Assembly: GCA_022579005.1 (NCBI GenBank)
Contig: MU401485.1
Span: forward strand, 1-64,000
Source of the DNA: Poronia punctata
Taxonomy: Eukaryota > Ascomycota > Sordariomycetes > Xylariales > Xylariaceae
Reading direction: 5' to 3'
Length of the DNA: 64,000 nt
The position numbers and the translations under genes are program-made. Numbering within the stretch: position 1 is the stretch's first letter; every line of letters begins with the position of its first letter. Shown here piece by piece: positions 35,135 to 37,500 of the stretch. The notes below the pieces were generated by a model that was not told the DNA's origin, searched no databases, and saw only the letters and a list, made by a program, of their open reading frames with translations.

Positions 35135-36008
35135 CTACTCTAGCCGCTGCATGAGATACTCCACCTCGACCTTTTTGGTAAGAGGAATGACAAAGTCCTT
35201 ATACATCAACATTACGGCTTCGGCGTTGATCTTGCCAGTGCCGCTCGGGTTACCCAGACCCGGGTCAGTTCCGTAAGTCTGGGCCTTGAGGAGGAGCCGG
35301 TCGAGCACCTGTTTCTCCACGGCCGGGATGGTTATAGACTCGGCAATACCGTCCCGATCTCCGGCCTTGATCATTCTTATGTACTTTTCCGGATCTGACT
35401 GGAACTTAGATTCGGCGACGAACTTGCCGAAGTGTATTCTTCGCGATATAGCTTGGAGGCAAGAGATATCGCAGGTAGCTGAGGAGCCGTAGTTCTCCTC
35501 CGACTCTCCGCGGTCGCCTCTGCCGAAGTCGGGGCAAACGCGGGGCAGAAATTTCTCGATGTAGTACTTCTTTATCTCCTCATTGACGTTGACGTCGTTC
35601 TTGTGGAGGATTTCTGGGTATTGCAGGGGCTTGAGAAGGGGCTTCTGGAGGGCATCGGGGTAAAAAGGGTACTCGTCAGGAGCTTCATAGCGGCGGATCA
35701 GCGACTGGAGCTTCTCCTGCTCACGCAGGTACCAGTCCATGAAGCTGAGGTTCGAGTCGCCATTGCCAAGATCGATGGCGCCTGGCTTGTATATGCTTTC
35801 GTTTAATGGGAATTGGACGCGTTCAATCAGATGAAATGTAATCGTGTCTTCCATGCGACTGTTGCGGGGTTAACCCAGTGAGCAAAGGTGTAAACACGAA
35901 AGGAAGTATCTTGTACAGCAATGCCAAGGCAACTCACATTAGTTGGAAGCGGATGTTGGCGAGGTCAAGCGCCTGGTTCTTGTCTCTGATATCGATTAAG
36001 GTATCCAT
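35135..36008 (-). CDS. ARO7: Chorismate mutase (AroQ type, eukaryotic)
   Basis: Exons are 36008-35938 and 35858-35135 (79-nt intron, donor GTGAGT, acceptor ACAG), giving 264 residues against 256 in yeast Aro7. The join reads [18 protein letters not shown], matching the first helix and its catalytic Arg. [16 protein letters not shown] contains the Arg and Lys equivalent to yeast Arg157 and Lys168. The end [16 protein letters not shown] carries the Thr and Glu of the C-terminal active-site helix. The enzyme converts chorismate to prephenate, the branch towards Phe and Tyr. The family is allosteric, inhibited by Tyr and activated by Trp. The residues recalled as essential appear intact. A TRIM-like element begins 158 bp upstream of its ATG. 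Confidence 0.95.
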
Positions 36009-36165
36009 ATTGCCGTTTTTCTCACAACCTGATCGTTTTGGAAGTTCGTGGAAAGAAGTTTGCTTGACTCGCACAATCCTCACTTGAAGCTGGCCGTAGT
36101 CGGCCGTCTGTTTGGGCGGCCGTTGATCAGGGTCATCAGGCAGATATACTTCGAGCTATGCCGGA

Positions 36166-36271
36166 TGTAGGGGGAAGGTACGGGTTGGGGTATAATAAGG
36201 GTCATTTACAGTGGGCTACTGTATTCACACCAACACTTCTACATACCACAATACACCTACCCAACCCAACA
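36166..36271. repeat. Left terminal direct repeat (LTR) of the TRIM-like element
   Basis: A 106-bp copy with TGT...ACA ends. It contains a TATAATAA box-like motif about 26 bp in, which could be its promoter. It is identical to the right copy. Confidence 0.85.
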
Positions 36272-36273
36272 TA

Positions 36274-36320
36274 TGGTGAGAGCTGCAGGATTCGAACCTG
36301 CGCGGTTTCCCATCGCGGTA
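36274..36320. other. Extended tRNA-complementary primer-binding segment
   Basis: Reverse-complemented, this gives a tRNA 3' end: CCA, discriminator A, acceptor strand AGCTCTC, then a perfect T arm (GCAGG stem, TTCGAAT loop, CCTGC stem) and a GC-rich stretch upstream resembling a long variable arm. There is no matching 5' acceptor GAGAGCT within tRNA distance, so it is not a tRNA gene. The long-arm look suggests a class II (Ser or Leu) tRNA, but this is uncertain. Confidence 0.7.
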
Positions 36321-36874
36321 CCCAATACACATCATAAGCCAAGGTCAATTATTCTATTTCAACATGTAATTCCAACAGTCATTACGCCGGCGTGCATTGC
36401 CTTGCCGCCTTCGCTTTCGCTGTTCTTTTGGCCACATACAAAAACATACCTACACACCCGGAATTACAAGAAGTAACCTACATGCCAAGTACTTATTCCG
36501 ACATACATACCTACTACAACGGACCAGATCTCCTCGCAACGGCTTGAGTAGAGAAGACTAAAGAACTATATACATACACTACCTCATTATTTCCAAATTC
36601 ATCACGATTAACGTCAAAAACGGGTCTAATTCGATCAAAATTCAAAAAATTCCAGCACATAACTCTGCACCAAACTTGGTGGACGGTATCCGACGTATTT
36701 CCGGGCCGGCGCAAGGGAAGGGGCAGGTAGAGGAGACCTTGTGGAGTGGTCATATTTGAAGGTAGTCAAGAGGATTTCGGAACGAGGTTATTATGATAAA
36801 TCTGGGAATATTCTGGTGGTTTGTGTGTTGGTTTCGCCTCGTCGGTGACGTATGGCGAGGGAGGTTTGGCCGTG

Positions 36875-36980
36875 TGTAGGGGGAAGGTACGGGTTGGGGT
36901 ATAATAAGGGTCATTTACAGTGGGCTACTGTATTCACACCAACACTTCTACATACCACAATACACCTACCCAACCCAACA
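36875..36980. repeat. Right terminal direct repeat (LTR) of the TRIM-like element
   Basis: A 106-bp copy, 709 bp downstream of the left one, with identical sequence, followed at once by CGGA. Confidence 0.85.
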
Positions 36981-36984
36981 CGGA

Positions 36985-37500
36985 GCTTCAGGGACTCAGG
37001 CCTGTCAGGTAGCGAGCGGGGCAGCAACATGTGGGGGACTTTTCACGGTGCCTATCGATACCACTTGTACCTTATCTGTCTTATCGTAGAAACACTAGCT
37101 CTATAGAGCTATGCGGGTGCGCATCATACAGTGTCTAAGTTGCTATTATCGTACTTTACACGGTAACGATAACCTAGGCTAGAGCTCCAAGACTTCTTGC
37201 GCCCGATGTCTCGTGCGCGTGGCTCGTGCAGCCTCACTCTATCACCAGCCTGCCGAATTTCTACGAGTATTACAGCCAAGTACCTCAGACCGAAGTTTTG
37301 TGCTGGACTCGGACAACCAGAACTTCAACTTCTATGGGATACATCGTTCCAGAAGTCTCGAGGCCAGATGAGCTCCATTAAAATTGGCAGCCCTCCTATT
37401 CGCTCGTTATAATTCATGTGCAGCGTCACTGCAACCATCGACGTACTATAATATCCAGCAAGTATAACAGCAAACTGCAGAACACGATATAATCACGCGC
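36985..37500. promoter_or_regulatory. Upstream region of MDV1
   Basis: About 0.5 kb between the TRIM-like element and the MDV1 start codon. It should hold the MDV1 promoter and 5' UTR. No specific motif can be defended. Confidence 0.4.

What the first reader, a model, noticed from the sequence alone, without database searches (positions are those of the whole stretch)
36162..36984. Compact TRIM-type retrotransposon between divergent chorismate mutase and MDV1 genes
Identical 106-bp repeats (TG...CA), a 4-bp CGGA target duplication, a tRNA primer-binding segment 2 bp inside the left repeat and a purine tract near the right repeat all agree on one 815-bp unit. It has no coding capacity. TRIMs are well described in plants and less so in fungi. 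It starts 158 bp from the chorismate mutase ATG and ends about 520 bp from the MDV1 ATG, so its repeats could affect either promoter.
Basis: partly seen in the sequence, partly recalled or inferred. Interest (0 to 1): 0.75.

Follow-up and report, generated by a model that had tools for sequence, protein, structure and literature searches.

The report
Fungal mini-retrotransposon with 45-nt tRNA site
A short non-coding jumping element sits between two genes of a fungus; it belongs to a family whose start site for DNA copying is complementary to about half of a leucine tRNA, much longer than usual, which hints at an unusual way of copying itself.

Summary
Window 36166-36980 has two identical 106-bp TG...CA repeats and a 4-bp CGGA duplication. 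It belongs to a dispersed family: 22 of 34 entries examined align over most of the element, and solo LTRs exist. Own 4-bp duplications: 18 of 21 full and 11 of 14 solo copies; mismatched-pair controls 12 of 420 and 7 of 182. It is TRIM-type; the purine run ends 10 nt short of the right LTR.

New: the primer-binding segment (PBS) is 45 nt, complementary to nt 38-76 of tRNA-Leu(UAG), past the usual m1A58 stop. Type A PBS equals the tRNA (0 transversions in 359 sites, 276 of 3867 elsewhere). Type B keeps only the two ends. Unlike LTRs occur in 5 of 9 type A but 1 of 16 type B copies (p=0.012, post hoc).

[quoted passage not shown] Recombination spreading a young A allele is the main rival; my linkage control could not exclude it. 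No pol-bearing partner was found; a 9.5-kb AT-rich family shares PBS and LTR end.

The parts
36162..36165 (.). left copy of the 4-bp target duplication CGGA
   Evidence: family-wide 4-bp TSD test
36166..36271 (+). 5' LTR, 106 bp, TG...CA
36272..36273 (+). 2-nt spacer TA between LTR5 and PBS
   Evidence: TA (or AG in a few copies) precedes TGG in the copies listed
36274..36318 (+). 45-nt primer-binding segment, exact complement of CCA + nt 38-73 of tRNA-Leu(UAG): acceptor 3' strand, T arm, variable arm, anticodon-stem 3' strand, nt 38
   Evidence: 42 encoded nt 100% to four tRNA genes at C17, C106, C208, C456; 45/45
36319..36874 (+). non-coding internal domain
36857..36864 (+). purine run GAGGGAGG, presumed plus-strand primer region; a 10-nt spacer 36865-36874 (TTTGGCCGTG) separates it from LTR3
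   Evidence: 21 copies printed, similar arrangement; function inferred
36875..36980 (+). 3' LTR, identical to LTR5
36981..36984 (.). right copy of the 4-bp target duplication CGGA

Best explanation
It is one copy of a TRIM-type (non-autonomous, non-coding LTR) retrotransposon family. Its RNA is primed by the 3' end of cytosolic tRNA-Leu(UAG) and mobilised by proteins supplied in trans. Its PBS is not the usual 8-18 nt (recalled) but the complement of the whole 3' half of that tRNA, ending at nt 38. I propose that during plus-strand strong-stop synthesis the reverse transcriptase reads through nt 58 and stops at nt 38, either because nt 37 (m1G37, recalled) blocks it or because the primer is a 3' tRNA half or unligated 3' exon that begins there. 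The 45-nt tRNA copy is then written into the new element (type A PBS). Type B elements keep only the two ends that matter, the proximal 13 nt (priming) and the distal ~14 nt (annealing of the plus-strand 3' end at strand transfer), and can be turned into A in one replication round. In some copies the plus-strand strong-stop DNA probably came from another molecule, leaving two different LTRs around an A-type PBS. SHOWN: family, TSDs, LTRs, the 45-nt match and where it ends, two alleles, exactness of A, some LTR-mismatched copies with TSDs. INFERRED: priming, trans-mobilisation, read-through, strand transfer.
For: Family and TSDs. PBS = tRNA-Leu(UAG) 3' half. In all 10 type A copies the tRNA-like stretch reaches nt 38; the next base is T in 9 (neither spliced tRNA nor genes) and G in L026 (as in the genes' introns, but the following bases do not continue). 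Type A copies other than the window and L047 (8 copies): 0 transversions in 359 compared PBS sites (12 transitions, 2 gap columns), against 276 of 3867 in the rest of the same internal regions; P ~ 3e-12 under an equal rate and independent sites. Leaving out the interrupted or truncated L040 and L042 gives 197 of 3033 (sums). The PBS is the most conserved of 663 45-nt windows in type A copies (rank 1 in 9 copies; in 5 complete copies 0.009 against 0.031 for the best non-overlapping window) but ordinary in type B (rank 101 in 17 copies; 64 in 5 copies). L022 (A) and L021 (B) are identical for 100 nt right after the PBS, and the nearest copy over those 100 nt is type B for all 10 A copies. In the C84 tandem the two internal regions show 0 transversions in 338 columns compared, but different PBS types. 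LTR5 and LTR3 differ by >=3 transversions in 5 of 9 A and 1 of 16 B copies, p=0.012; of these A cases L022 and L042 have a 4-bp TSD at the set boundaries, L027 after a 2-nt shift, and the L043 tandem has one at its outer ends. HIV-1 plus-strand products ending at nt 37 exist but are not functional there (PMC13191261, passages).
Against: No reverse transcripts were seen. My control failed: a 3'-end variant unrelated to the tRNA is also unlinked to the internal tree, so the family recombines heavily, and the lack of phylogenetic signal for A/B (7-8 changes, 7.7-7.9 shuffled) does not prove tRNA copying. The C84 tandem units also differ by transversions in their LTRs. The LTR-mismatch association was found post hoc in small numbers; with a threshold of >=1 transversion it is 6 of 9 against 3 of 16, p=0.031. 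L026 has no TSD by the test, and the type B copy L034 also has unlike LTRs. ARAGORN places the tRNA intron one base later than the canonical 37/38 position, so the end at nt 38 carries an uncertainty of one base. The m1A58 and m1G37 state of this tRNA is unknown. L047 (type A) has 2 transversions. No pol-bearing partner found.
Confidence: 0.5

Rival explanations
1. Type A arose once, recently, by copying the tRNA, and was then spread among type B elements by ordinary recombination (template switching between co-packaged RNAs, or gene conversion); there is no recurrent long copying of the tRNA.
For: The family is strongly mosaic: an unrelated 3' variant is as unlinked as the PBS type. The nearest LTR5 is type A for 5 of 9 A copies (one tie); L022 LTR5 is nearest to L030 (A) and L026 LTR5 to the window (A).
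Against: Exchange tracts would have to end within or close to the 45-nt PBS again and again: mean A-A, A-B and B-B distances are similar in LTR5 and in the six internal windows compared, with A-A clearly below A-B only in one (0.074 against 0.094), and the nearest copy over the 100 nt after the PBS is type B for all 10 A copies. A single young allele also sits poorly with the more changed A copy L047.
Confidence: 0.35
2. The full 45-nt complementarity is ancestral and kept by selection for priming; type B is a decayed branch.
For: Two relatives (L063, L064) resemble the spliced anticodon arm beyond nt 38 (L063: none of 400 local background draws and none of 1000 shuffles reaches its score; L064: P=0.010 and 0.029), so a longer tRNA copy may be old.
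Against: Type B is the commoner form (23 of 34 PBS entries by my labels) and is also found in the 9.5-kb family; type A copies do not form a clade. The other 7 of 9 loci tried show no such extension.
Confidence: 0.1
3. Direct gene conversion from chromosomal tRNA-Leu genes wrote the tRNA sequence into the elements.
For: Four intron-bearing tRNA-Leu(UAG) genes share the 42 nt exactly; in L026 one further base agrees with the genes.
Against: The CCA complement (TGG) is not in the genes at that place, and no A copy continues into the intron by more than that one base.
Confidence: 0.03

Closest known systems
TRIMs (terminal-repeat retrotransposons in miniature; plants, ant, cestodes, bivalves, a filamentous fungus)
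   Same: Under 1 kb, 100-250-bp terminal repeats, PBS after the left repeat, no coding, solo repeats and tandem copies (features as given in PMC6934838, passages and whole discussion; fungus: PMC4112212, passages).
   Different: 45-nt PBS to tRNA-Leu(UAG) with two alleles; purine run 10 nt short of the right repeat. In bivalve TRIMs no canonical PBS could be identified (same paper).
Ty3/Ty1 reverse transcription
   Same: Their bipartite PBS resembles type B; in Ty3, dead-end plus-strand strong-stop DNA accumulates (PMC5371799, passages and whole section 2.2).
   Different: Ty1 and Ty3 do not inherit the tRNA sequence, and the Ty3 copy covers 12 nt; here 45 nt of tRNA sequence is found in insertions.
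Mouse ETn/MusD PBS variants
   Same: Perfect and mismatched PBS scattered over the tree, with suggested reversion by tRNA copying at 50:50 (PMC7472051, whole section 4.3).
   Different: There the PBS is the ordinary short one with a few mismatches; here the alleles differ over a longer middle part with indels, beyond nt 58.
HIV-1 plus-strand strong-stop products
   Same: A minor product ending at modified nt 37 is known (PMC13191261, passages).
   Different: In HIV-1 that product is inactive; the PBS here would make it usable (inference).
Fungal GalEa and FunCo1 Copia elements
   Same: LTR elements of filamentous ascomycetes (PMC5445492, passages).
   Different: GalEa lacks a tRNA PBS and has a conserved hairpin; FunCo1 uses an internal tRNA-Lys region.

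Membership tests
TRIM | length under 1 kb with direct terminal repeats of about 100-250 bp | tested here: met
   815 bp, 106-bp repeats
TRIM | no coding capacity | tested here: met
   longest ORFs touching the element 84, 79, 67 aa; these were not searched for domains
TRIM | PBS complementary to a tRNA next to the left repeat | tested here: met
   36274-36318, 45/45 with tRNA-Leu(UAG)
TRIM | polypurine tract at the right end of the internal domain | tested here: inconclusive
   purine run present but 10 nt from LTR3 in the window and similarly placed in the other copies printed
TRIM | short target-site duplications, dispersed copies, solo repeats | tested here: met
   4-bp TSD 18 of 21 full, 11 of 14 solo; controls 12 of 420 and 7 of 182
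TRIM | trans-mobilisation by an autonomous element | tested here: inconclusive
   no rve, RVT_1 or RVT_2 match lies inside a PBS-bearing element in sense orientation (against 3, 17, 40); a 9.5-kb AT-rich family shares PBS and LTR end
Cassandra-type TRIM | 5S rRNA segment in the LTR (recalled) | tested here: not met
   no Rfam match at gathering in the window or up to E 1 at 36000-37200
SINE | tRNA or other pol III head, no LTRs (recalled) | tested here: not met
   LTR pair with TG/CA ends; no tRNA gene or Rfam match in the window

The most novel reading that the evidence does not exclude
The family replicates with a plus-strand strong-stop that is normally the tRNA nt-38 product, and displaced strong-stop DNAs (LTR + 45-nt tRNA copy) complete other molecules' minus strands. 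Insertions with an A-type PBS and two unlike LTRs would then be genomic fossils of intermolecular plus-strand transfer, and the tRNA-templated PBS would mark the junction.
Probability: 0.3. Interest if true: 0.75.

Novelty: new variant of a known kind. Interest (0 to 1): 0.55.

Why it matters
Known LTR elements copy only the last 12-18 nt of their tRNA primer, because of m1A58 (HIV-1), or do not inherit the tRNA sequence at all (Ty1, Ty3). A family whose PBS spans the whole 3' half of a tRNA and matches it to the base would make plus-strand termination and transfer readable from genome sequence, and gives a testable case of a stop at nt 37/38. It also adds a well-documented TRIM family in a fungus.

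Tried and rejected
Local duplication without transposition: rejected by dispersed copies with own TSDs. 5S-bearing (Cassandra) or known RNA family: no Rfam match. Type B as complement of another tRNA: the four genes sharing the tRNA-Leu(UAG) 5' half are the four with the type A 3' half, and a fifth match differs at 3 of 24 bases; the other tRNA genes were not surveyed. Autonomous partner: the intact C12 pol ORF lies in a 7.5-kb stretch with no LTR pair and no such PBS within the mismatch limits used; the gypsy RT stretch in L062 is antisense to that locus's PBS. Of the 17 RVT_2, 34 RVT_1 and 3 rve matches (candidate lists are capped) none lies inside a PBS-bearing element; the closest, compared by position by me, are an rve fragment about 0.6 kb from the solo LTR at C8:228287, an RVT_2 match about 3.9 kb from the solo LTR at C82:126596 on the other strand, and an RVT_1 match about 7 kb beyond the C95 copy. 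The 9.5-kb family gave only weak tblastx matches in AT-rich DNA, no tblastn match to the C12 pol and no Pfam family above its cut-off for the one piece tried. Phylogenetic test of A/B: no signal, but the control failed too, so it is not used as proof. Anticodon-arm similarity beyond nt 38 stands out only for L063 and L064 of 9 loci tried. The TSD test used 21 full and 14 solo loci whose ends I could set; L035, L039, L041, L048 and L065 were not in it. In one search the L030 right LTR was mislocated and L025 aligned too short; for the 9-versus-16 count L030 was taken (0 transversions) and L025 was dropped (with L025 in as B: p=0.0097); L040 has no left LTR. L031 counted 10 transversions and 1 plus a long gap; the latter was used. 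Empty site and cross-species comparison: the tool says the genome has no relatives held. Literature: ten searches (searches returned no paper) whose listings, and the passages I read, showed no PBS of this length; most subscription papers are not in that library, so this is no proof of absence.

Full report
What is there. The window carries an 815-bp unit at 36166-36980: two identical 106-bp direct repeats beginning TG and ending CA, flanked by CGGA on both sides. Searching the whole genome with it gave 44 matches, 40 of 69 candidates scored, so the count is a lower bound. Of 34 PBS-bearing entries examined, 22 (the window included) align over most of the 815 bp; LTR-only loci are also present. 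For 21 full and 14 solo copies whose ends I could set, a 4-bp target duplication is found in 18 and 11; pairing the left flank of one copy with the right flank of another gives 12 of 420 and 7 of 182. The family is therefore a transposed LTR element. It has no evident coding capacity and the window matches no RNA family. The gene upstream is chorismate mutase (TIGR01802). The transition-rich copies and AT-rich repeats look like RIP in a filamentous ascomycete (inference); the organism was not identified.

The primer-binding segment. Two bases inside LTR5 begins TGG followed by 42 nt that are identical to four tRNA genes. With introns allowed, ARAGORN reads all four as tRNA-Leu(UAG). Together with the CCA complement the match is 45 nt: acceptor strand, T arm, the 11-nt variable region, the 3' strand of the anticodon stem and nt 38. 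The numbering uses the usual intron position between nt 37 and 38 (recalled); ARAGORN places the intron one base later, so the end point is uncertain by one base. In the 10 type A copies the base after nt 38 is T in nine, unlike the spliced tRNA and the genes, and G in L026, as in the genes, where the next bases do not follow. HIV-1 plus-strand strong-stop DNA normally ends at m1A58, after 18 nt; a minor product ends at modified nt 37 and is inactive (PMC13191261, passages read). That the stop here would be m1G37, or the 5' end of a 3' tRNA half, is inference. Predicted joint folds with the tRNA gave -113.1 and -116.9 kcal/mol for two A copies, -73.1 to -78.1 for four B copies and -105.3 for L064.

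Two alleles. By my labels, 10 of 34 PBS entries are type A (the tRNA sequence, with some transitions), 23 are type B and one (L064) is intermediate. Type B keeps TGGTGAGAGCTGC and the distal TTTCCCATCGCGG, give or take transitions, but differs between them by transversions and several extra bases. In the 8 type A copies other than the window and L047 there are 0 transversions in 359 compared PBS sites, against 276 of 3867 in the rest of the compared internal sequence; L047 has 2. Among type A copies the PBS is the most conserved of 663 windows; in type B it is ordinary. Something therefore keeps type A equal to the tRNA: recurrent copying or a very recent origin.

Tests of copying against recombination. 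Type A and B are mixed on trees of the internal region and of LTR5 (7-8 changes, as for shuffled labels), and mean A-A, A-B and B-B distances are similar in LTR5 and in the six internal windows compared. I took this as support for tRNA copying until a control, a 3'-end variant with no tie to tRNA, proved equally unlinked. The family is highly mosaic, so this line does not decide. The nearest LTR5 of an A copy is type A in 5 of 9 (one tie), which leans towards recombination, while over the 100 nt after the PBS the nearest copy is type B in 10 of 10. What remains are sharp cases. L022 (A) and L021 (B) are identical over the 100 nt after the PBS. The C84 tandem has internal regions with 0 transversions in 338 columns but different PBS types, although its LTRs also differ. 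In addition, 5 of 9 A copies but 1 of 16 B copies have LTR5 and LTR3 differing by 3 or more transversions (p=0.012; with 1 or more, 6 of 9 against 3 of 16, p=0.031). L022 and L042 among them have 4-bp TSDs at the set boundaries, L027 after a 2-nt shift, and the L043 tandem at its outer ends. Ordinary reverse transcription makes both LTRs alike; transfer of a plus-strand strong-stop DNA (LTR plus tRNA copy) to another molecule's minus strand would give exactly LTR1, A-type PBS, internal 2, LTR2. This reading is post hoc, rests on small numbers and could be mimicked by later gene conversion.

Relatives. A family with a 113-nt LTR (my reading) has its left LTR and type B PBS at C145:19454 and a right LTR at C145:28879-28981, 9.5 kb in all; two further copies are 93% and 90% identical over 6745 and 2514 aligned bases. 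It shares the LTR end (in three TRIM copies the match covers the last 36-44 nt of the LTR as well as the PBS), the PBS, and, in the one right end read, an AAGGGAG run short of the LTR like the TRIM's. Its interior is AT-rich without a recognisable pol, so it may be the decayed autonomous partner or another non-autonomous element. No rve, RVT_1 or RVT_2 match lies inside a PBS-bearing element in the sense orientation. In L063 of this family, and in L064, the sequence after nt 38 resembles the spliced anticodon arm, which hints that an older tRNA copy reached further; seven other loci show nothing of the kind.

Comparison with print. TRIM features were taken from PMC6934838 (passages and whole discussion); TRIMs related to Copia and Gypsy are reported in Cochliobolus heterostrophus (PMC4112212, passages). 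Mouse ETn/MusD show perfect and mismatched PBS scattered over trees, with suggested reversion by tRNA copying (PMC7472051, section 4.3). Ty1/Ty3 do not inherit the tRNA sequence and Ty3 builds up dead-end strong-stop DNA (PMC5371799, passages and section 2.2). In ten searches of the held library I saw no report of a PBS of this length.

Verdict. The element is a TRIM-type retrotransposon (very likely, about 0.95). Its 45-nt PBS, with a tRNA-exact and a bipartite allele, is an unusual variant. The recurrent-copying mechanism is favoured but not proven (0.5; lowered from 0.55 when the LTR5 neighbours were recounted).

Noticed in passing
L063 (C145:18500-26500), C145:28879-28981, L077 (C10), L078 (C376): 9.5-kb LTR element family with 113-nt LTRs and the same tRNA-Leu PBS (type B), strongly AT-rich, no recognisable pol; candidate partner of the TRIM.
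   Followed up: partly
L043 (C84:10800-13600, minus): Tandem LTR-internal(A)-LTR-internal(B)-LTR with one outer 4-bp TSD; internal regions differ by transitions only, except in the PBS.
   Followed up: yes
L040 (C144:88092-88435): Copy that begins at the PBS with no 5' LTR; could be an insertion of incomplete cDNA.
   Followed up: no
L041 (C44:207000-216800): TRIM split by about 8 kb of AT-rich DNA; a 61-bp identical direct repeat lies at its two outer ends.
   Followed up: no
L064 (C17:39000-46500, minus): Truncated relative whose PBS has the tRNA T-stem on both sides but a foreign T-loop.
   Followed up: partly
L075 (C12:118000-125500): Intact gypsy-like pol ORF of 1353 aa without an LTR pair in the 7.5 kb fetched; possibly a domesticated or solitary element.
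   Followed up: partly
C8:227437-227706 and C8:228287-228387: An rve (integrase core) fragment lies about 0.6 kb from a solo LTR of this family, on the same strand.
   Followed up: no
LTR, near window 36209-36225: Small inverted repeat ACAGT...ACTGT in the LTR, seen in many copies with changes on both arms (RIP could also produce these).
   Followed up: no
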